From a virus, in IMG/VR virus record IMGVR_UViG_3300008262_000102, positions 1-59,649 of that record: a stretch of 59,649 bases of DNA; one strand, 5' to 3'. Below the pieces are notes generated by a model. The model searched no databases. It saw only the letters and a list, made by a program, of their open reading frames with translations, and was not told where the DNA came from. The position numbers and the translations under genes were made by a program. Of the stretch, positions 9,528 through 48,282 are shown piece by piece. Position 1 is the first letter of the stretch. Every line of letters begins with the position of its first letter.

Positions 9528-11033
9528 TTAGGTGTTGGTGTCTGTTGGTGCTACAAAATTGTTAAAATAATCTAAAATTTCTTTATGGGAAACAAACTCA
9601 TTTGTCTGAACGTGTTCGGGGGACGTTAATATGTATGGAACATAGTAATCTTTCATGATATCATAATACTTAGACAAATCTACAAGTCTCAGACCATGTA
9701 ATACCTGCATCCAGCTTCTATCAGTGAACATACTGAAATCAATTTCGGGAGATTTTCCCTGATGTAGTTGTTCTAGAATTACTGCTAATCTTTCTGGAGG
9801 TGGGTAATTCTTTTGAAAGTCTCTCCAAAATTCAGTATCCTGTCGCTTGGTCATGTAGTGTAGATAAACAAATTCTAGTATGTTAGTGTTGCGATCGAGG
9901 CATCGCTTGTTAAGGTCTTCTTCGAACTTGAGGTCAGTGGTATTGAATCCATCACAATTTAAAAAATCAATAACATTCAACGCACTGACCCAAATGTTTG
10001 TGGCTTCCAACGGTTCTAAGAATCCTGCACTTAGTCCAACCGCCATGGAATTTCCCACCTTGGTCTTTTCATATGTGCCTGCTTCGAACTTAAAAATTTT
10101 AGGCACAGTAAGTTGTTGACCAAAAAATTCCTGTGCTTCTTCGAGAGCTTCTTGATCTGAACAGAATTTTGAATTATACACGTACCCGCATCCGTATCTA
10201 CCGTTTACAGGAATTCTCCATATCCAACCATTCTTCATACAGAATGCATCAGTCACTGGTGAAATGTTATTGTCGTGCTCGATGAAAAACGGCATCGCTC
10301 TGTCAAGACCACAGCTGTCTGCATAACTGTTCCATTTGACTTTGTGATGTTTTCCAATTACTAATCGAGCAAATCCTGAACAGTCAAATACAAAGTCGCA
10401 GGCTAATTCACTGTCATCATCTAAAATTATATGGGTAATAATGTTATCACCTCGGAATTCTTTAACTCGTGCATCTATATGATGTATGCCCTTGTTAGCT
10501 GCAAACTTTGATAGATACGTTGCTAATAGCCTTGCATCAAAATGCAAAGAAAACTGTCCGTGATGATTTAAAGGAAACGCATCAAGGGATGAATCTTTGT
10601 CTGTCCAGGTAAATGGTACACGATTTTCCTTTGACATTTTTTCATACACTGATAAATCTTGTGAATCGCTGTCAGCGATAGACGCTTGCAATGACAGCAA
10701 CTTGTCAATCAAGTTTTGATGTACAGGAATTGGATTATGAACTTCGTCTTTGTATATAAAACTATGGAAATAACTTTGTCCGTCGTTGTTCCAGTTGGCA
10801 AAATTAATTCCTAATTTGAATGTGGCCTTGCATTCTCTAATTAAATCTGTGATTGGAATGTCCAACATGTCGAGAATATTTGTTAAGAATGGCACGGAGC
10901 CTTCGCCAGCACCTAAAATACCAATTTCGCCACTTTCTATAAGTGTTACGTCATAGTGTGGATAGAATTTTTTAGCAAATAACGCAGTAAACCAGCCAGC
11001 GGTTCCACCACCGATTATATAAACTTTTTTCAT
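9528..11033 (-). CDS. Flavin-dependent (tryptophan-type) halogenase
   Basis: 501 residues, the normal length. The FAD dinucleotide motif is IIGGGTAGW (residues 6-14). The catalytic lysine is in CKATFKLGINFANW (Lys73). The WxWxIP signature of flavin halogenases is WIWRIP (270-275), and the catalytic glutamate lies in LEPLEATNI (Glu343). All active-site landmarks are thus intact. The family uses FADH2 and O2 to make HOCl/HOBr that is carried by the lysine to an aromatic substrate; viral members exist, such as VirX1 from a cyanophage. The substrate is unknown. A TATAAATA late element lies 5 bases before its ATG, and a radical SAM gene sits directly upstream. Confidence 0.92.
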   Translation of the reverse strand: MKKVYIIGGGTAGWFTALFAKKFYPHYDVTLIESGEIGILGAGEGSVPFLTNILDMLDIPITDLIRECKATFKLGINFANWNNDGQSYFHSFIYKDEVHNPIPVHQNLIDKLLSLQASIADSDSQDLSVYEKMSKENRVPFTWTDKDSSLDAFPLNHHGQFSLHFDARLLATYLSKFAANKGIHHIDARVKEFRGDNIITHIILDDDSELACDFVFDCSGFARLVIGKHHKVKWNSYADSCGLDRAMPFFIEHDNNISPVTDAFCMKNGWIWRIPVNGRYGCGYVYNSKFCSDQEALEEAQEFFGQQLTVPKIFKFEAGTYEKTKVGNSMAVGLSAGFLEPLEATNIWVSALNVIDFLNCDGFNTTDLKFEEDLNKRCLDRNTNILEFVYLHYMTKRQDTEFWRDFQKNYPPPERLAVILEQLHQGKSPEIDFSMFTDRSWMQVLHGLRLVDLSKYYDIMKDYYVPYILTSPEHVQTNEFVSHKEILDYFNNFVAPTDTNT

Positions 11034-19749: not shown

Positions 19750-20828
19750 ATAAAATCTTTGCTATCACTCCTGTCAACGAAGATCCGTTTATTGTAACCT
19801 GGGATCTAGGACGGAGATGCAACTACGATTGCAGTTATTGTCCTGCCCATAGACATGATAATTTCAGTTCACATGCCAGTTTAGAACAATTAAAAGCTAC
19901 GACAAATTTCTTGTTTGATTACATTCTATTGGTTTCGCAGCATAGAAAAAACAAAGATTTTCATGTGAGCTTTACCGGTGGTGAGCCTACAGTTAATCCT
20001 GTATTCATTGATTTTGCAAAATACATTCGCAAAGAGTATGATGACACATACAAGAATGCGTTTAATCTAAAGCTCAGTCTAACCACTAATGGCGCGATGA
20101 GCGAAAAAACAGCACAGGCTGTGATTGAAAATTTTGATTATGTGACAGTTAGCTATCATGCAGAAGCCAAAGACTCAGTCAAGACCAGTGTTATTGATCG
20201 AATTAAATTTTTCAACAGCAGTGAAATTGGGGTCAAGGTAAATGTAATGTTTCATGCAGACTACTTCGATGAATGTAAGACAGTCTGTGAAAGATTATCA
20301 TCATGGGATGTAAAGTTCATCCCTCGACTGATAGGTGATGACCCTGACAGTAAGTCCAGTCAAGCACACTTGTACACTGATGATCACAAACAGTGGCTAA
20401 AACAAAACTGGAATATTGATATTACTCCTACTTCTAGACCATGTTGCGGTGGTAGAGAGTTTGGAGTTTGCAGCACTGCTGGTCAAGAAACAGCAAAAGC
20501 AGTAACTGATAGACAATTTAAGAATTGGCACTGTTCAGTTAATTGGTACTTTTTACACATAGAACAACAAACAGGATTGGTATATCATCACCAGACCTGT
20601 CAAGCCACACTCGACAGCAAACGAGGAAGCATAGGAACATTAACAGAATCAGATACTATTGTTGAAACCCTACGCGACCACTTGATTAATAAAACAATGC
20701 CGGTGATAACGTGTCCTAATAATCTCTGCGGCTGCGGCCTATGTACTCCAAAGAGTTCCGATAGGCAAAAATTAATGTCAGCTATGAAAGATGTAATGAT
20801 CAGCACAGAGATTTTTCACAATGTCTAA
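19746..20828 (+). CDS. Radical SAM enzyme with Cys-rich C-terminus (operon A, gene 6; paralogue of 11042)
   Basis: 360 residues from a TTG start inside a TTGA overlap. CNYDCSYC (25, 29, 32), FTGGEPT, then CCGG, CSVNW, C-x-ATLDSKRG and a final CGCGLCTPK, the same tail as the protein at 11042. The pair shows that the enzyme type was duplicated into two transcription units of opposite orientation, one beside the halogenase. Confidence 0.85.
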   Translation: MNKIFAITPVNEDPFIVTWDLGRRCNYDCSYCPAHRHDNFSSHASLEQLKATTNFLFDYILLVSQHRKNKDFHVSFTGGEPTVNPVFIDFAKYIRKEYDDTYKNAFNLKLSLTTNGAMSEKTAQAVIENFDYVTVSYHAEAKDSVKTSVIDRIKFFNSSEIGVKVNVMFHADYFDECKTVCERLSSWDVKFIPRLIGDDPDSKSSQAHLYTDDHKQWLKQNWNIDITPTSRPCCGGREFGVCSTAGQETAKAVTDRQFKNWHCSVNWYFLHIEQQTGLVYHHQTCQATLDSKRGSIGTLTESDTIVETLRDHLINKTMPVITCPNNLCGCGLCTPKSSDRQKLMSAMKDVMISTEIFHNV

Positions 20829-21894
20829 TACTGTATGTGCATATCCGTGGGCTGGAGCGGCAGTAAGGCCCGACGGCACTATTCTTCCTTGCTGTAAATT
20901 TATACACAACAAAGAATTTGGCAATATCACAGACCAAGATCCCAGAAATTCCAGCGCATGGTCCGAGCTACGCAAGAGCATGTTAGCAGGAAATAAAATT
21001 GATAACTGTAAAACATGTTATAGAGATGAAGCCAGCGGAGTTGAAAGTCTAAGGCAACAGAGTTTAAAATTTTATCAACCAGTTGACACCAAGGCGCAGC
21101 CTCTCAAACAGTTAGAAGTCAGCTTTGACAATTTATGCAATCTTGCCTGTGTCATGTGTTCTGAAGAATTCAGTACTAAATGGCAGACAGAAAAATACAC
21201 TCACAGAAAAATCATAGCCACCGGTGTTATGGCGCATGGATTTGATTATACTTCTTGGGATTTAACCAAGGTCACGCATCTTAAAATAATAGGCGGCGAG
21301 CCGATGATGAGTCAAGAAAAATTTATCAAACTGCTTAGACAATTTGACTTAAAGAATCTTGAGGTAGCTGTTACTACAAACGGTACAATTTTACCAAATT
21401 TGGATCTTAAAACTCTATTAGAAACTTGTAAGAGTGTATCTTATAAAGTCAGTCTCGATGGAGTAGGAGAAATCAACGATTGGATTAGATGGCCAAGTAA
21501 ATTTTCTGTGATAGAAAATAACATCAACACTCTGGAACAATGGTGGGCAGGCACTAACGTTGATTTACAATTCCACACTGTGATTGGAATATATAATATC
21601 AATCATTTGCAAGACTTAGTGGATTTTGTAGTGAAGAAACCTGACTGGAACATTACCTGGAACTGGGTAACTACTCCTGCATGGCAATCAATATCAGTAG
21701 TAACGGACAAAGAAAATTTAAAAATACAATTACAAGAATTAGGATCAAAGTATGATCTTGATCCTAATCCCTTCTATATCAGTGTTGATAGGCTATGTGA
21801 TGAATCACAGTCCGATTGGCTCACTGCTGTAAAAGAAACCCAAAGACTGATTTCGGAAAGAAACGTAGTTCCTACAAATTTTAATGTAGGTTAA
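20821..21894 (+). CDS. Twitch-domain radical SAM protein (operon A, gene 7)
   Basis: 357 residues. N-terminal CAYPWAGAAVRPDG, CC (24-25) and CKTC (63, 66) form the twitch-type cluster site; the radical SAM motif is CNLACVMC (106, 110, 113), then IIGGEPM. It resembles the protein at 16705. Its 3-prime end overlaps, tail to tail, the fibre gene on the other strand by 14 bases. Confidence 0.85.
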   Translation: MSNTVCAYPWAGAAVRPDGTILPCCKFIHNKEFGNITDQDPRNSSAWSELRKSMLAGNKIDNCKTCYRDEASGVESLRQQSLKFYQPVDTKAQPLKQLEVSFDNLCNLACVMCSEEFSTKWQTEKYTHRKIIATGVMAHGFDYTSWDLTKVTHLKIIGGEPMMSQEKFIKLLRQFDLKNLEVAVTTNGTILPNLDLKTLLETCKSVSYKVSLDGVGEINDWIRWPSKFSVIENNINTLEQWWAGTNVDLQFHTVIGIYNINHLQDLVDFVVKKPDWNITWNWVTTPAWQSISVVTDKENLKIQLQELGSKYDLDPNPFYISVDRLCDESQSDWLTAVKETQRLISERNVVPTNFNVG

Positions 21895-23152
21895 CCCAAG
21901 CACTGCTGTCGTATACCTGCACTTTATTTGTGGCTGCAGGAGTAGTGCCCGATGTCATAAAAATCATCATACCAGCAGTTGGAGTCGGCACTAATGCGGT
22001 ACGAGCCGTGTCGTCGGCTACTACAGGAAGTTTTGGAGGTAACTGAAACTCTGTTGAAGTTGGTTTGAATCGTATGGTATTCGTAGCGTTTACTGTTAAA
22101 TCCATTCTCGCAGGCGGATTACTTCCAGGCGTTACTACACCGTCTACCACAACACTTAGAATAGATGACGGTTGAAATTGTGTACCATCGTATGCAGAAA
22201 AAGTAATACCTCCGACGAAATCTCCGTTTTGAACTATTGTCTGTGAAACAATCGATCCTCTGGATTTCTGAATAAGTATCGATGGGCCAAACGTAGCTGA
22301 GCTAATGAAAGCAGCTACGTTTAGAGTGGGGGTATTTGGAACACTACCGTCATGACTGCTAACAACGTTGACGCCGCTATCGGATATAAAGAGCGGATTA
22401 CCGGTTATTACAGATGCACCAGACAATGCAATGCCAGTAAGAGCCGCTGTTTTGGCGGTGTTATTGATAATAGTTGATGTATCTGTGGCTAACACATTAC
22501 CGGTGACGTTGGCAAACACTGGAGCAACGATTCTTCCATCAACACCGTCTACTAGAAGAGTAGACGAATCTGAAAATACACTGCCAGTGATATCGCCAGT
22601 AAACCGTCCTACAAAAGATTTGTCAATGGCATTAACCATCAAGCTGGAATCATCTGCAAAAATTGATCCGTTTACATCGCCGTCGACGTTTCCAGTAACA
22701 TTGCCAGTTAAGTTTCCAGTAACATTACCAGTTAAGTTTCCAGTAACATTGCCAGTTAAGTTTCCAAAAAATCCGTTAGAGGCATATATTTTTTCGTCAA
22801 TGGTATCTATCATAACCGACGAGTCATCAGCAAAAATAGAACCCTGCAATGCTGACGCATTAATTATGCCGTTATAGTTTGATAAATCTACAGATGCAGA
22901 TAAACTTGCGGTGGCATCGTTGTATGTGAACGTTATTCCTGAATGTACTCCGTTGCTGAACAGAGTGGCTGACGCATCTTGCGCATCTTCATTGGTATAT
23001 CCGGTAATTTGTATACCGCCGAGAGTACTGCCGTTTCCGACATATAATCTCTCAGCTCCTGGTGTCGTAACAAACAACAGCTCGCCTTGTGCAAGCGGCT
23101 GCGTCATTGCTAATCTTTCTGCATCAGTGCCTCTGCGAATCTGTAAGGGCAT
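21881..23152 (-). CDS. Tail-fibre-like protein with Mtd-type N-terminus and GNLT/GNVT repeats
   Basis: 423 residues. The N-terminus PLQIRRGTDAERLAM, AQGELLFVTT, RLYVGNGSTLGG is the motif set of the major-tropism-determinant/fibre N-terminal domain. The middle has glycine-rich short beta repeats, including three exact 24-base DNA repeats encoding GNLTGNVT. The C-terminus ends with ATNKVQVYDSSAWVNLH, a common fibre trimer-tip ending. CAGGAG and an exact TATAAATA late promoter precede it. It is the only clear virion gene inside the enzyme island. Confidence 0.8.
   Translation of the reverse strand: MPLQIRRGTDAERLAMTQPLAQGELLFVTTPGAERLYVGNGSTLGGIQITGYTNEDAQDASATLFSNGVHSGITFTYNDATASLSASVDLSNYNGIINASALQGSIFADDSSVMIDTIDEKIYASNGFFGNLTGNVTGNLTGNVTGNLTGNVTGNVDGDVNGSIFADDSSLMVNAIDKSFVGRFTGDITGSVFSDSSTLLVDGVDGRIVAPVFANVTGNVLATDTSTIINNTAKTAALTGIALSGASVITGNPLFISDSGVNVVSSHDGSVPNTPTLNVAAFISSATFGPSILIQKSRGSIVSQTIVQNGDFVGGITFSAYDGTQFQPSSILSVVVDGVVTPGSNPPARMDLTVNATNTIRFKPTSTEFQLPPKLPVVADDTARTALVPTPTAGMMIFMTSGTTPAATNKVQVYDSSAWVNLH
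22692..22763 (-). repeat. Three tandem 24-base repeats in the fibre gene
   Basis: Units at 22692-22715, 22716-22739 and 22740-22763 differ by one base and encode GNLTGNVT steps. Such in-frame repeats can change fibre length by slippage or recombination. Confidence 0.9.
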
Positions 23153-39604: not shown

Positions 39605-39678
39605 TGGTGCTCCAACCAAGAATCGAACTTGAAATACATCCTTACCAAGGATGCGTTATGCCATTTAACTATAGGAGC
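39605..39678 (-). tRNA. tRNA-Thr(GGT)
   Basis: Anticodon arm CATCC-TTGGTAA-GGATG, T loop TTCGATT, CCA encoded. The first 14 bases overlap the stop region of the upstream oxygenase gene; one acceptor pair is mismatched. Confidence 0.9.
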
Positions 39679-40246
39679 ATTCTATATCTGCTGCTAACAC
39701 AAAGCGATAGTGTTCGCTCTGCACTATGCCCGGGCGATGCCAGGTGTCGCTGGGATAAATGATCCAGTGGCCTTCGGCGGGTTTAATGAAATATTTTCCG
39801 TCTTGCTCTGCACCGTTGGGTGCTATCTCTGTGCCGCAATAGTCTCGATCTTTAACATCATTGGGAATATGCAGATAGTATATTCCGCTGAACATTTTAC
39901 TGTTTGGATTTTTTGGATGCCAGTGGTGATGCCATAAGTTGTCGCGATTTTCGGCACCCTGGAGATTTGTCATAAAACTCCAAGCCATCATTTCAGAGAC
40001 TTTTACTTCTCGTCCAAGATACATGAATACCGAGAACATAAAACTCATGCGGTATTTTAACCAAACAGCTTCTGGTCTAGCAAATATGTTTTCTTTGGTT
40101 TGGAATTTGGGACTATTGGTAAAGTAGTCACCATTGGTTATGATGTTAGTTACGATGCCGCAGGCAGCGATATCATCTTGCTCAGTGATGACACTGCGAA
40201 AATTAAATTTACGTACAAGTTCTGTTTGATCAACAACTGGCTGCAT
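39665..40246 (-). CDS. 2OG-Fe(II) oxygenase-like protein
   Basis: 193 residues. LWHHHWHPKNPNSKMFSGIY, GKYFIKPAEGHWIIYPSDTW and HRPGIVQSEHYRFVLAAD give the His cluster, the distal His and the Arg strand of a double-stranded beta-helix oxygenase. It is distinct from the TIGR02466-like paralogues. The final codons lie inside tRNA-Thr, so the stop codon is part of the tRNA D arm. Confidence 0.65.
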   Translation of the reverse strand: MQPVVDQTELVRKFNFRSVITEQDDIAACGIVTNIITNGDYFTNSPKFQTKENIFARPEAVWLKYRMSFMFSVFMYLGREVKVSEMMAWSFMTNLQGAENRDNLWHHHWHPKNPNSKMFSGIYYLHIPNDVKDRDYCGTEIAPNGAEQDGKYFIKPAEGHWIIYPSDTWHRPGIVQSEHYRFVLAADIECSYS

Positions 40247-42462: not shown

Positions 42463-42552
42463 TGGCGGAAGACCGGGGACTCGAACCCCGAAGACGTTTT
42501 AAAGCGACCGACGGTTTAGCAAACCGCTCCAATACCATTATGGGAGTCTTCC
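42463..42552 (-). tRNA. tRNA-Ser(GCT)
   Basis: Type II tRNA with a long variable arm; anticodon arm CGGTT-TGCTAAA-CCG reading GCT; discriminator G and CCA encoded. Confidence 0.93.
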
Positions 42553-42559
42553 GTGTTGT

Positions 42560-42633
42560 TGGTACCTCGTGACAGAATTGAACTGCCGTGTCCGCTGTGT
42601 AAAAGCGGCATTCTACCATTAAATTAACGAGGC
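42560..42633 (-). tRNA. tRNA-Val(TAC)
   Basis: Anticodon arm CCGCT-TTTACAC-AGCGG; acceptor GCCTCGT/ACGAGGT; CCA encoded. Confidence 0.93.
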
Positions 42634-43581
42634 AAACTATTCTGAAACACACTAAGTCTTAAAGTCCAACGATGAATTTACGACCAGCCTAATGTGTTTT
42701 AGAATAGTGTTAAGACTGAGATTACATCTTAACCATAAGCACCTCTAGCATTACCGTACACCTTGCGAGCATACGTTCTCTAGACATCCACTAAGTCCAT
42801 ATCACTATGTAACCTAGTCTGCTTACAGTATCGCCGTTTTTAAAGACAGGCATTAGTCTTGTCGCTATGTGCTATTCTACACCATCTATCCCGTTAACCT
42901 TGCGAGCTATTCAGCGGCGCTAACCACTTACGAAACTTCCAGTATAAACTAATGTTACCTTGCGAGCTTCATTAGACTTGATTGTGTTGCCACTCAAGTA
43001 TTAGATACTTTTCACACATAACCGAGGCAGTCTTTGCATTTTTGTTGATAGTTGGGATCGAACCAACAGTCTATTTCTTAAAAGGAAATCGCGCTACCAT
43101 TACGCTATATCGAACCTACCGCGATGAGCTGCCTCTGTTGCTGAATAATCTTTTGAACTACCCAATACAACTCACCACATACCTTTTGCCTCGCGAGCTA
43201 CTCAGTGATGTTTCACGATCGGTGTACTGTATTACTACAGCCCACTAACCTCCACCGGTCTTATCAGTGAACGCTACCTCGCGGTAGTGAGCAGGCTTGT
43301 TTACGTGAACCATTTCTGGCGCTGGTATGTAGGCATTCCAGCTTTGGGTGTGTCGCCACACTTATTCTTCGTAGACGGCAAGCCGCCTACAGGACAATAA
43401 ACTGCCCTTAAATTCTTTACCATTAAAAATAACATTAGACCCTATGGGATCAAGCATATTTCTGAGTGGAGTTCGATGCTCCTCATAAGCCATTGCTCAC
43501 GGTTATATCAGAAGAGTAAGATGGCCCTATTCTTCATGAGACTGTGCGTCCACAGACGATTCCCGTCAATGCTATTTTTAA
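42634..43581 (-). ncRNA. Candidate giant structured RNA (GOLLD/ROOL-like), 0.95 kb, with embedded tRNA
   Basis: This 948-base stretch has no credible gene on either strand but many stems: ACTATTCT...AGAATAGT closing the 3-prime end (42636-42651 with 42693-42708), CTAATG/CATTAG, GTTA/TAAC, AAGTAT/ATACTT, GTAG(A)CGGC/GCCG(C)CTAC and GAGGCAG/CTGCCTC around a tRNA-Lys-like domain. The loop sequence GCTCGCAAGGT recurs three times on the minus strand (42763, 42899 and 42957 region). Large ornate RNAs of phages (GOLLD, ROOL) are known to lie in tRNA arrays and can contain a tRNA. A promoter at 43722 reads into it through tRNA-Leu(TAG). The assignment rests on pattern, not homology. Confidence 0.5.
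43043..43114 (-). tRNA. Degenerate tRNA-Lys(TTT) embedded in the large structured RNA
   Basis: Anticodon arm ATTTC-CTTTTAA-GAAAT and T arm GTTGG-TTCGATC-CCAAC are good. The acceptor stem has mismatches and CCA is not encoded, unlike every other tRNA here. Outer stem GAGGCAG/CTGCCTC encloses it. Probably a structural domain rather than a working tRNA. Confidence 0.6.
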
Positions 43582-43665
43582 TGGTGCCCCAGGAGAGACT
43601 CGAACTCTCACGCCTTGCGACATCGGCTTCTAAGACCGACGTGTCTACCATTCCACCACCGGGGC
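43582..43665 (-). tRNA. tRNA-Leu(TAG)
   Basis: Type II; anticodon arm CGGT-CTTAGAA-GCCG; variable arm TGTC-GCAA-GGCG; CCA encoded. Confidence 0.95.
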
Positions 43666-43721
43666 AAAATTACTAACCTAACTTTTTAAAGAACGTTTAA
43701 CTAATTTCTTAGTATGTGTAT

Positions 43722-43750
43722 ATTGTAACATCATATTTAAATGCTGTCAA
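43722..43750 (-). promoter_or_regulatory. Sigma-70 promoter inside the tRNA array
   Basis: TTGACA (43745-43750), 17 bases, TACAAT (43722-43727) on the minus strand. It reads into tRNA-Leu(TAG) and the large structured RNA. Confidence 0.8.
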
Positions 43751-44278: not shown

Positions 44279-45322
44279 TTAATTGATCCAATCGACCATT
44301 TCAGCCATTCGTCTACGATATTCCGAAACAAATGGTTCTTTAACATAGGGTATGTATGGGTTGGTCTGTACAAAGTTATAATCGTGTTGCATTCTGTAAC
44401 ACATTCTGTTTGTTATACCACCCAATCTTCTATGTAACGTAATAGAATTATCAAATAAACATAAGTCTGTATCTGATTGATACCAATGATCATACATGTA
44501 TTTTTCTACAAATAATTCATTTTGTATTTTATCTAATAATTTTTTAGATTCTATATCAGACATTCCTTCGATCTTACTAATCGTGTTCACACTTATATGC
44601 AGTCCTTTGTGTCCCCCAGGACTGGTTACGATCAACGGGATTCTCGAATCGTCTACTGGACACATATTTTTCTGCATTATAGAATCTTGTTCTTCTATAA
44701 GTCCGGGATTTATTCTTCCTGGAGTGAACCGGTGAAGCAGTACCATTTCATCTAGCTCACTTCTAAAACTCTCACTTAATGATTCATAATAATCAACCGT
44801 GGTCAAAAAGCCAGTGGCACTTCCTACTACACCCGATCTACCTAACAGCGACACTCCGGGAGTAAAACACAAATCTCCCGATTCGTTGCTATGCCACAGT
44901 AACTCTCCTTCGGCAAACATTCCCAAAGGGTCACCGCTGGGATCTTTCATTCCAGTGACCTTCATTATAGAAGTTGGCTTTCCGTCTTCGATGAGCATGA
45001 GTTTACTGGCAGATCTTAAAAATTTCTTATCATCATCATCTATGACGTTGGAATTTTCTAAAACTTTTTGAAAAATTTCACCTACGGAAACTCCATACTT
45101 TTTTTGTAATCTGTGCGCTTGATTTGTTCTCGGTAGCCCCAGTTTAAAAATTAATTCTTCGTACCTAAACGTGTTTAGATTTGTATTTCTTATAATAGTT
45201 ACTAATTTTTCTAGGTGCAATTTTCCTATCTCTTGCCATTCTTCGTTGGTTATATTATCAAAGTCAACATCGTCGATGAAGACCCCAAATCTCCCCAACC
45301 CTGGTATTTTACTAATTTTCAT
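44279..45322 (-). CDS. TauD/TfdA-like 2OG oxygenase
   Basis: 347 residues. LLWHSNESGDLCFTPGVSLL is the first metal motif position, and LCLFDNSITLHRR the distal His region with Arg; IDDVDF and the N-terminal GVFIDDVD fold elements also fit the TauD/clavaminate-synthase-like family. The usual HxD is HSN here (Asn in place of Asp, followed by Glu), so iron ligation may be changed. GGAGAGGGAA and AATAAATA lie upstream. Substrate unknown; amino-acid hydroxylation is common in the family. Confidence 0.72.
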   Translation of the reverse strand: MKISKIPGLGRFGVFIDDVDFDNITNEEWQEIGKLHLEKLVTIIRNTNLNTFRYEELIFKLGLPRTNQAHRLQKKYGVSVGEIFQKVLENSNVIDDDDKKFLRSASKLMLIEDGKPTSIMKVTGMKDPSGDPLGMFAEGELLWHSNESGDLCFTPGVSLLGRSGVVGSATGFLTTVDYYESLSESFRSELDEMVLLHRFTPGRINPGLIEEQDSIMQKNMCPVDDSRIPLIVTSPGGHKGLHISVNTISKIEGMSDIESKKLLDKIQNELFVEKYMYDHWYQSDTDLCLFDNSITLHRRLGGITNRMCYRMQHDYNFVQTNPYIPYVKEPFVSEYRRRMAEMVDWIN

Positions 45323-45370: not shown

Positions 45371-46816
45371 TTAACAATTTTTCAAATGTTTTTTATATTC
45401 AAGTATCTTATTTTGAATTTTAACATGCACATCGGGATTATGTATTAAATCGATTAATCTTGTATTGAGAAGGTCTTTCCATGAACCAAGTCCCATTGCA
45501 GCACAATCCATTAGAGGCCAGCTATGGGCTGTGTTGCTTCTTTCTGTATTGAACTCTTTTGCTATGTTAGAGGCATCGTCAAAATTAGTCCAATCATTGG
45601 TCCAGCTATAGTTATTTCCTCTATCTAATCGATATCCATATTTTTCATAGTTCTTGTCGATGTCACTTTGATATCTCATTTTTGTTCGTATAAACAAAGG
45701 ACTCCAAATGGTGTTGAAATCATATTCTTGACACCATTCAAAACTTTTCCTACAACTATCAATAGTTTCATGCGGCAATCCAACAATAAACGAACAGATA
45801 AAATTAGAGCCATTGTCGGGATTGAAATGACTTTCTTTTAATTCTATAAGAAATTCTTTTATTTTTTCGCTATGAAAACCTTTTCCGACTGCTTTTGCAG
45901 ATTCTAGATTTAGACTTTCTACTCCAAAAAAACCGCTGCGTAATCCCATTTCTTTAAGCAAAGTGATTTGATCTCTATGTGCATGAAGCAGATCTAATCT
46001 AAGATAGGTTATAAAGTTTACCTTAAATGGCAAACTTGTAATAACTCTGTGTATCTTTTCTAGCTTTTCTGTACTGTCATTAAATGTGTCATCACAGAAA
46101 GTGTAATTGGTTACTCCAAATTTTTCATAATTTCTTATAAATTCTTCTCTTAAAAATTCATAGTCACGAATGTAATCTAATTTCTTTTTACCTGTTAACT
46201 GAAAATTGCAAAACTTACATTTGAAAATGCAACCTCTGCTAATTTCTATAGGTAACGTTTCTCCTGGAAAAATAACATCGTTATCTTCCCATTGATGTTT
46301 AAGATGCTCGATGTCTACAGGATAGTGTTCACCTTCTATAATTTTTGTACCCAGAGAAATATTCCAAATTGGTTTTTTCTTACCCACCAATGACAGAGCG
46401 TACTCTATTACAGAATTATCTGAGTATCCATGAAATACCGCATCAAAAATAGGATCTCCTATTTCTTGATGACTGTGTGCTCCACCTGAGATAAATTGAA
46501 TCTTTGGATGTAAAGATTTTATCTGTTTTAACACTTCTTTTAACGAGGCCGGCGTCCCTTCGCTAAACGTAGCATGCATCTGTGTCACATCTACGTGTTG
46601 AAAAAAGGTAGTGCTAACTCCGATGATCTTTGTATTATCTCCGATGAACAACTCGATGGTTTCTAACAGTTCATTGTTTGAAAAACTGTTTACCATAGGG
46701 ATAACTTGTACTGAAAACCCATTTCTTCTTAACGAGTCTGCTATTCTGTAAGGCCCTATTGTTTTAGCGAATGGCGCGACAGATAGATGAGTTAATAATA
46801 TCACATCATATTTCAT
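45371..46816 (-). CDS. B12-binding-type radical SAM protein (paralogue of 23254)
   Basis: 481 residues. CIFKCKFC (196, 200, 203) with ETLPIEISRG before it and FCDDTFNDST after it, matching the 23254 protein (ETLPIEISRG, CIFNCKFC, FSDDTFNDST). N-terminal Rossmann part has GPYRIADSLRRNGF and GVSTTFF. It lies next to a TauD-like gene, away from the main operons. A GATAAGTA element ends 5 bases before the ATG, so the mRNA is expected to be leaderless. Confidence 0.85.
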   Translation of the reverse strand: MKYDVILLTHLSVAPFAKTIGPYRIADSLRRNGFSVQVIPMVNSFSNNELLETIELFIGDNTKIIGVSTTFFQHVDVTQMHATFSEGTPASLKEVLKQIKSLHPKIQFISGGAHSHQEIGDPIFDAVFHGYSDNSVIEYALSLVGKKKPIWNISLGTKIIEGEHYPVDIEHLKHQWEDNDVIFPGETLPIEISRGCIFKCKFCNFQLTGKKKLDYIRDYEFLREEFIRNYEKFGVTNYTFCDDTFNDSTEKLEKIHRVITSLPFKVNFITYLRLDLLHAHRDQITLLKEMGLRSGFFGVESLNLESAKAVGKGFHSEKIKEFLIELKESHFNPDNGSNFICSFIVGLPHETIDSCRKSFEWCQEYDFNTIWSPLFIRTKMRYQSDIDKNYEKYGYRLDRGNNYSWTNDWTNFDDASNIAKEFNTERSNTAHSWPLMDCAAMGLGSWKDLLNTRLIDLIHNPDVHVKIQNKILEYKKHLKNC

Positions 46817-48080: not shown

Positions 48081-48208
48081 ATATGTTAACACACTCGGCT
48101 CCCCTTACAACCTTGTTCCTGTCAATTCAGGATGCACCTGGAATGAACCCAGCGGATCCCCTTGGTTGTTTGTATCTGTCAATTCAGATTGAAAGTGTGT
48201 TAGCATAT
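48081..48208 (-). ncRNA. Long hairpin element filling the gap between two tRNAs
   Basis: ATATGTTAACACACT (48081-48095) pairs with AGTGTGTTAGCATAT (48194-48208) except one position; the arms touch the end of each flanking tRNA. An inner ACAACC/GGTTGT stem and two small hairpins with the same loop (CCTG-TCAATT-CAGG and TCTG-TCAATT-CAGA on the plus strand) follow. Confidence 0.5.
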
Positions 48209-48282
48209 GGTAGGGGCACAGGGACTCGAACCCTGATAGACCGGTTAAAAGCCGGCTATTCTAGCCTTTGAATTATACCCCC
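48208..48282 (-). tRNA. tRNA-Lys(TTT)
   Basis: Anticodon arm GCCGG-CTTTTAA-CCGGT; CCA encoded. Confidence 0.95.

What the first reader, a model, noticed from the sequence alone, without database searches (positions are those of the whole stretch)
42634..43581. Possible giant ornate RNA of the GOLLD/ROOL type with an embedded tRNA-Lys
A 948-base non-coding stretch with many nested inverted repeats, three copies of a GCTCGCAAGGT loop motif, a tRNA-like domain without CCA enclosed by a GAGGCAG/CTGCCTC stem, and a promoter upstream. Giant RNAs known from phages lie in tRNA arrays and may hold a tRNA, so this fits in place, size and style.
Basis: partly seen in the sequence, partly recalled or inferred. 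Interest (0 to 1): 0.88.

Follow-up and report, generated by a model that had tools for sequence, protein, structure and literature searches.

The report
Phage GOLLD RNA with crippled tRNA
A virus of bacteria carries, inside a cluster of 34 tRNA genes, a copy of the known giant cage-forming RNA called GOLLD, and within it sits a tRNA whose business end is broken; the same pattern in many related viruses suggests that these built-in tRNAs are kept as look-alikes and not as working tRNAs.

Summary
Rfam's GOLLD model (RF02032) matches the MINUS strand at 42713-43178 over its full length (203.5 bits, cut-off 150; E 5e-56). The RNA lies between tRNA-Leu(UAG) and tRNA-Val(UAC) in a phage tRNA array. 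The embedded tRNA-Lys(UUU) sits in GOLLD's variable linker, where tRNAs are already known. The "enclosing stem" GAGGCAG/CUGCCUC is a strongly covarying GOLLD pseudoknot, also present in GOLLDs without a tRNA.

Two things were not in the finding. (1) The window copy lacks 177 nt of the conserved 5' (cap) domain. A second record of the same virus, otherwise 99.9-100% identical over 9.4 kb, has them, so this is a deletion variant or an assembly fault. (2) In 29 distinct linker tRNAs, 27 have an imperfect acceptor stem (free tRNAs of the same loci 46/243; 16 of 17 lineages). D, anticodon and T arms stay paired and covary, the elbow motifs are in 29/29, and at least 13 different anticodons occur.

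Best reading: a member of a known family whose linker holds a tRNA mimic that is not meant to be matured. GOLLD identity is near certain; the mimic mechanism is inferred (about 0.55).

The parts
43722..43750 (-). sigma-70-like promoter TTGACA-17-TACAAT with extended TG, upstream of tRNA-Leu and GOLLD
   Evidence: consensus match only (10 sites found, 8.0 expected by chance)
43582..43665 (-). tRNA-Leu(UAG), CCA encoded, directly upstream
43420..43581 (-). leader element between tRNA-Leu and GOLLD; ends form an inverted repeat ACCATTAAAAATA / TATTTTTAATGGT whose upstream arm overlaps the CCA end of tRNA-Leu
   Evidence: homologous to L241 5797-5950 (77.6%), where the repeat is ACCATTAATTGAA / TTCAATTAATGGT (read); two sequences only, weak
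43179..43417 (-). GOLLD 5' (cap) domain, truncated
   Evidence: homologous to nine relatives; in the relatives 49 of 121 predicted pairs have double changes
43248..43250 (-). junction where 177 nt of the 5' domain are missing compared with L273 (8594-8770)
42713..43178 (-). GOLLD 3' (ring) domain, Rfam RF02032 model 1-416
   Evidence: 203.5 bits, E 5.2e-56 (alignment)
43129..43135 (-). pseudoknot strand 1 (GAGGCAG)
   Evidence: 5 of 8 pairs with double changes in tRNA-bearing GOLLDs, 6 of 8 in a set mostly without tRNA
43024..43030 (-). pseudoknot strand 2 (CUGCCUC)
43043..43114 (-). linker tRNA-Lys(UUU); acceptor pairs 1:72 (U.C) and 3:70 (C.A) not formed; no CCA
42957..42967 (-). GCUCGCAAGGU hairpin loop, copy 1 in RNA order
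   Evidence: aligned to a model hairpin
42897..42907 (-). GCUCGCAAGGU loop, copy 2
42760..42770 (-). GCUCGCAAGGU loop, copy 3 (in a model loop with insertions)
42636..42708 (-). 3' terminal hairpin following the Rfam end, before tRNA-Val
   Evidence: 7 of 17 pairs with double changes in nine relatives; z = -5.0
42560..42633 (-). tRNA-Val(UAC), CCA encoded, directly downstream

Best explanation
This is a phage GOLLD RNA, transcribed on the minus strand as part of a tRNA operon (tRNA-Leu, GOLLD, tRNA-Val) and probably trimmed at its borders by tRNA processing. As in the solved GOLLD, the 5' and 3' domains should form cap and ring of an RNA cage with the linker inside (taken from the literature, not shown here). 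In this branch the linker, clamped by a covarying pseudoknot, carries a tRNA fold with intact D, anticodon and T arms but a broken acceptor end and no CCA. I infer that the damage is selected: maturation by RNase P and RNase Z at this tRNA would cut the cage RNA in two. The tRNA is thus kept as an uncharged look-alike that presents elbow and anticodon arm in the cage interior, most likely to hold something that binds tRNA. Shown: GOLLD identity, position, pseudoknot, tRNA pairing pattern across homologues, redundancy with a free tRNA-Lys(UUU) in the same array. Inferred: operon processing, cage, resistance to maturation, a bound partner. The window copy itself may be non-functional because 177 nt of its cap domain are missing.
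For: GOLLD. Array. tRNA at one linker site in many GOLLDs. Acceptor imperfect in 27/29 distinct linker tRNAs against 46/243 free tRNAs of the same loci (p 1.6e-15), lesions mostly at positions 1-3; D, anticodon and T arms not worse. By lineage, 16 of 17 clusters at 80% identity. With any choice of frame for the acceptor, 11 of 14 were still imperfect against 20 of 188. D 4/4 and anticodon 5/5 pairs show double changes, so the fold is maintained and not just recent. G18G19 and TTCRA 29/29, U33 26/29. In the window 32 of 33 free tRNAs encode CCA, the linker tRNA does not. Free tRNA-Lys(UUU) present. Within one cluster of 3' domains (single linkage at 80% identity) five members carry five different anticodon loops. 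Literature: the linker lies inside the 14-mer cage and sometimes holds tRNAs (PMC12286853); the tRNA inside a Mycobacterium GOLLD was called a pseudo tRNA and gave no separate Northern signal (PMC6582537).
Against: Two linker tRNAs of one lineage (L526, L534; Arg UCU) have a perfect acceptor and a CCA tail, so at least one branch could release a real tRNA. Mismatched or bulged acceptors do not prove resistance to RNase P or Z; the window's acceptor could still pair with one bulged base. No expression, processing, binding or structure data for these RNAs. The window copy has lost part of the cap domain.
Confidence: 0.55

Rival explanations
1. The embedded tRNA is an ordinary phage tRNA that is cut out of the GOLLD transcript and used in translation; GOLLD and tRNA merely share a transcript.
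For: ARAGORN and Rfam score it as well as its neighbours (58 bits). The anticodon loop looks able to decode (U33 in 26/29). The L526/L534 lineage has an intact acceptor and CCA.
Against: 27/29 acceptors imperfect; CCA absent where the other tRNAs of the array encode it; the same anticodon is already served by a free tRNA in the window, L145, L241, L249, L264 and L657. Excision would cut the cage RNA.
Confidence: 0.12
2. The linker tRNA is a decoy for one particular class of host enzyme, such as defence anticodon nucleases: anticodons diversify in an arms race and the tRNA need not be charged.
For: Anticodons change fast at a fixed site (Lys, Asn, Arg, Ser, Ile, Leu, Gln, Pro, Tyr and CUA among others). 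The anticodon stem is fully kept by compensatory change. Phage tRNAs that evade tRNA-cutting defences are published (titles PMC10264068 and PMC11555353; not read).
Against: Three members have 8-nt anticodon loops (L064, L076, L407), odd for a decoy of an anticodon-reading enzyme. No partner known. GOLLD was dispensable for phage production in one Lactobacillus prophage (stated in PMC7567579).
Confidence: 0.18
3. The tRNA is a passive relic: tRNA genes insert easily into the tolerant linker in tRNA arrays and then decay.
For: Position in tRNA arrays; variable isotype; some near relatives have no recognisable tRNA (L067, L095, L016).
Against: Decay should hit all arms. D, anticodon and T arms are 97.5-100% paired with many compensatory changes and the elbow motifs are in 29/29. 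No free tRNA of the window is a close copy of the linker tRNA.
Confidence: 0.12
4. The window's own copy is simply a broken or misassembled GOLLD with no function, whatever its relatives do (this can be true together with the best explanation).
For: 177 nt of the conserved cap domain are missing while a record 99.9-100% identical over 9.4 kb (L273) has them.
Against: The 3' domain and linker tRNA are intact and identical to L273; the deletion may be an assembly fault.
Confidence: 0.35

Closest known systems
GOLLD RNA (Rfam RF02032), structure of env-38 in PMC12286853
   Same: Full 3' domain at family score; tRNA-array setting; variable linker at the same place; 5' region of about 404-438 nt in the relatives, as in env-38 (420 nt).
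   Different: Linker holds an acceptor-damaged tRNA-Lys; the window copy lacks 177 nt of the 5' domain.
Pseudo tRNA inside the Mycobacterium aubagnense GOLLD (PMC6582537)
   Same: A degenerate tRNA within GOLLD in a phage-derived tRNA cluster; no separate tRNA signal on Northern blot.
   Different: There a single case; here a pattern over 29 linker tRNAs in 17 lineage clusters.
ROOL RNA
   Same: Large phage RNA near tRNA genes that forms a hollow cage with a linker inside (PMC12286853).
   Different: No Rfam ROOL match; different sequence and structure.
Bacterial Y RNAs (tRNA mimics) and tmRNA (from own knowledge)
   Same: A tRNA-like fold used outside normal decoding.
   Different: Y RNAs bind Rsr/Ro, and tmRNA keeps a chargeable acceptor but no anticodon arm; here it is the reverse, an anticodon arm without a proper acceptor.

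Membership tests
GOLLD (RF02032) | Covariance-model match at or above the gathering score of 150 bits | tested here: met
   203.5 bits, E 5.2e-56
GOLLD (RF02032) | Match over the complete modelled 3' region | tested here: met
   model 1-416 of 416
GOLLD (RF02032) | Phage or prophage origin, near tRNA genes | tested here: met
   IMG/VR virus record, 34 tRNAs by ARAGORN
GOLLD (RF02032) | Variable linker after the first hairpin domain of the 3' region, sometimes holding a tRNA | tested here: met
   PMC12286853
GOLLD (RF02032) | Structured 5' region of about 420 nt (less conserved part of the family) | tested here: inconclusive
   present and covarying in L273 and relatives, but 177 nt missing in the window copy
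GOLLD (RF02032) | Assembly into a closed 14-mer cage | not testable with these tools
   needs cryo-EM or mass photometry
GOLLD (RF02032) | Expression rising during lysis | not testable with these tools
   no RNA data
ROOL | Rfam ROOL match | tested here: not met
   no ROOL match at gathering or at E up to 1 for 42500-43700
Functional tRNA gene | Intact 7-bp acceptor stem | tested here: not met
   pairs 1:72 and 3:70 not formed
Functional tRNA gene | CCA encoded, as in the other tRNAs of this array | tested here: not met
   tail AAAA; 32 of 33 free tRNAs have CCA
Functional tRNA gene | D, anticodon and T arms with elbow motifs | tested here: met
   all paired; covarying across homologues

The most novel reading that the evidence does not exclude
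A large branch of phage GOLLD RNAs carries rapidly changing, uncharged tRNA mimics inside its cage (up to 14 per particle if the solved stoichiometry holds), displaying elbow and anticodon arms to capture host or defence proteins that act on tRNA, while acceptor damage protects the cage RNA from tRNA-processing enzymes.
Probability: 0.3. Interest if true: 0.85.

Novelty: new member of a known kind. Interest (0 to 1): 0.52.

Why it matters
What GOLLD cages do is unknown. The literature suggests they may enclose phage tRNAs. If the linker tRNAs are systematically unable to mature, then delivery of tRNAs for translation is unlikely and a mimic or decoy role becomes directly testable with point mutations in the acceptor and the anticodon arm. 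The census also gives a natural control: one lineage (L526, L534) with an intact acceptor and CCA.

Tried and rejected
Blastn of the whole stretch against phage records: the hits listed lay only under tRNA-Leu; the 3' domain without tRNA found none, and 24 kb of the phage gave no near relative, so no named phage or host. Patterns with 14 fixed bases gave many chance matches; paired motifs with set spacing worked better, though most hits with long spacing were false on inspection and were not used. L495 was rejected as a chance hit (no GOLLD match). The one scan of bacterial genomes gave no verified linker-tRNA GOLLD. Thermodynamic folding of the tRNA alone is uninformative (z -0.22), as is folding of most of the leader element (z -0.82). 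Weinberg 2009 and Morgado 2020 are not held, so I could not check whether the pseudoknot or the acceptor pattern was described there; two paper searches found no such report.

Full report
WHAT IS THERE. cmscan of the window against Rfam gives GOLLD, RF02032, at 42713-43178 on the minus strand, 203.5 bits against a gathering score of 150, E 5.2e-56, model positions 1-416 of 416. The record is a 59,649-base IMG/VR virus record with 34 tRNA genes by ARAGORN, all on the minus strand. GOLLD lies between tRNA-Leu(UAG) at 43582-43665 and tRNA-Val(UAC) at 42560-42633. No ROOL match was seen.

ANATOMY. The embedded tRNA-Lys(UUU), 43043-43114, falls in the low-conservation stretch of the Rfam model after its first hairpin domain. 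In the solved GOLLD env-38 (833 nt; 5' region 1-420, 3' region 421-833) the disordered linker is 497-538 and faces the cage interior (PMC12286853); counted from the start of the 3' domain, the window's tRNA sits at the corresponding place. That paper states that phage-encoded tRNAs are sometimes present in the linker, so a tRNA there is not new.

THE "ENCLOSING STEM" IS A PSEUDOKNOT. GAGGCAG lies between two strands of a Rfam helix and pairs with CUGCCUC behind the linker, so it crosses that helix. In ten tRNA-bearing GOLLDs, aligned without regard to pairing, 97.5% of its cells pair and 5 of 8 pairs show changes on both sides. In eleven distinct GOLLDs whose linkers are mostly too short for a tRNA, it pairs in 93.2% of cells with double changes in 6 of 8 pairs. 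It belongs to GOLLD and not to the tRNA. It is not in the nested structure printed for the Rfam model; whether it was drawn in earlier papers I could not check.

5' AND 3' PARTS. In relatives the conserved 5' domain runs about 404-438 nt upstream of the first hairpin of the 3' domain. RNAalifold on nine relatives predicts 121 pairs, 49 with compensatory changes. The window has only 249 nt there. The record L273 is the same virus: 100% identical over 8,593 bases and 99.9% over the next 776, but with 177 extra bases exactly at window 43248-43250 (sequence). These bases contain blocks that do not vary among the nine relatives of the alignment, and the gap removes one side of several helices. The window copy is therefore a deletion variant or an assembly fault. 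Behind the Rfam end, a hairpin with arms of 18 columns (17 pairs counted) before tRNA-Val covaries (7 of 17 pairs with double changes; z -5.0). Its place suggests a processing element; that is inference. Upstream, a leader element (43420-43581) has one homologue among the loci held, in L241 (77.6%).

THE LINKER tRNA IS NOT AN ORDINARY tRNA. In the window its acceptor has two unpaired positions (1:72 U.C and 3:70 C.A) and no CCA, while 32 of 33 free tRNAs of the array encode CCA. The array also has a free tRNA-Lys(UUU) at 48208-48282. I then collected GOLLD relatives from viral contigs. A tRNA sits at the same linker site in many of them. For 29 distinct linker tRNAs, with arms located from the inside outwards by the same rule for all, the acceptor is imperfect in 27, against 46 of 243 free tRNAs on the same loci (Fisher p 1.6e-15). 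Lesions concentrate at positions 1-3 (17, 10 and 7 cases). D, anticodon and T arms are as good as in free tRNAs. CCA follows in 3 of 29. An earlier count that let the acceptor frame slide freely still gave 11 of 14 imperfect against 20 of 188.

CONTROLS AND LIMITS OF THAT TEST. The sequences are related. Clustered by their flanking GOLLD sequence at 80% identity they form 17 lineages, 16 of them imperfect. Some anchoring errors inflate the imperfect count of the FREE tRNAs (for example window tRNA-His and tRNA-Tyr), which works against the effect. Several scans selected on the T-arm motif, so T-arm and TTCRA conservation is partly by selection, but acceptor state was not selected. ARAGORN calls also favour well-formed arms; L241, which ARAGORN missed, was added by hand. 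In scans blind to the linker, 11 of 52 GOLLD-like loci had a linker tRNA; not every one of the 52 was checked with Rfam. Rfam confirmed GOLLD above cut-off for L145, L241, L249, L250, L271, L274, L407, L502, L526 and L264, L273, L483, L517, L657, L658, and at E 1e-24 or better for L166, L457, L510, L534, L538. The loci L012, L020, L021, L058, L064, L068, L076, L090, L091 and L460 were recognised by profile and pseudoknot only.

THE FOLD IS MAINTAINED. In the ten-sequence alignment all 4 D-stem and all 5 anticodon-stem pairs have double changes, and these stems pair in 97.5% and 100% of cells; the acceptor pairs in 77%. G18G19 and the T-loop motif occur in 29/29, U33 in 26/29. At least 13 anticodons occur, including CUA. 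The window's relatives L145, L241, L249 and L657 have Asn(GUU) where the window has Lys(UUU), loop CUGUUAA against CUUUUAA. Five members of one single-linkage cluster (80% identity) of 3' domains have five different anticodon loops. This is not what random decay or selection for one codon would give.

MECHANISM. Most likely the RNA is made with its tRNA neighbours, trimmed by tRNA processing at its borders, and forms the cage, with the tRNA fold held inside. Damage of the acceptor end would spare it from RNase P and RNase Z, whose cuts would split the cage RNA, while elbow and anticodon arm remain as a binding surface. Operon, cage, resistance and partner are inferred. A published parallel: the tRNA in the M. 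aubagnense GOLLD was judged a pseudo tRNA and gave no separate Northern signal (PMC6582537). Against: the L526/L534 lineage has an intact acceptor with CCA and may release a tRNA.

VERDICT. The finding is a true member of a known RNA family, with the known trait of a linker tRNA. What seems not to have been stated in the papers I could search is the general, arm-specific acceptor damage with fast anticodon change. That makes the function of the linker testable. The window copy itself should be treated with care because of the 177-nt gap.

Noticed in passing
window 9528-11033 and 11042-31814, 45371-46816: The phage encodes a tryptophan halogenase (PF04820, 334 bits) and about ten radical-SAM proteins, one with a SPASM domain and two with B12-binding matches; an unusual load of modification enzymes for a phage.
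   Followed up: no
window 44279-45322, 39665-40246: A taurine-dioxygenase-like protein and a 2OG-Fe(II) oxygenase-like protein within the tRNA array.
   Followed up: no
window 43248-43250 compared with L273 8594-8770: 177-nt gap in the GOLLD 5' domain between two otherwise near-identical virus records.
   Followed up: partly
window 43420-43581; L241 5797-5950: Possible separate structured leader element between tRNA-Leu and GOLLD, with a closing repeat that changes on both arms between the two sequences.
   Followed up: partly
record of L483 (G031) 20212-20657 and 21539-22019: Two GOLLD matches in tandem in one virus record, 164 and 129 bits.
   Followed up: no
L271 1294-1368 and 2645-2717: A free tRNA and a GOLLD-linker tRNA that both read as anticodon CUA (amber); the phage may read UAG as sense.
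   Followed up: no
L510 798-1046: Sub-threshold match to archaeal RNase P RNA (RF00373, 54 bits, cut-off 84) in a GOLLD-bearing virus contig.
   Followed up: no
window 44187-44159 and 41997-41969, minus strand: Two perfect consensus TTGACA-17-TATAAT sites inside the tRNA array, suggesting several separate transcription units.
   Followed up: no
L457, L526, L534 linkers: GOLLD-linker tRNA-Arg(UCU) with intact acceptor and CCA, although the free tRNAs on the same loci lack encoded CCA: the reverse of the usual pattern.
   Followed up: partly
L064, L076, L407 linkers: Linker tRNAs with 8-nt anticodon loops.
   Followed up: no
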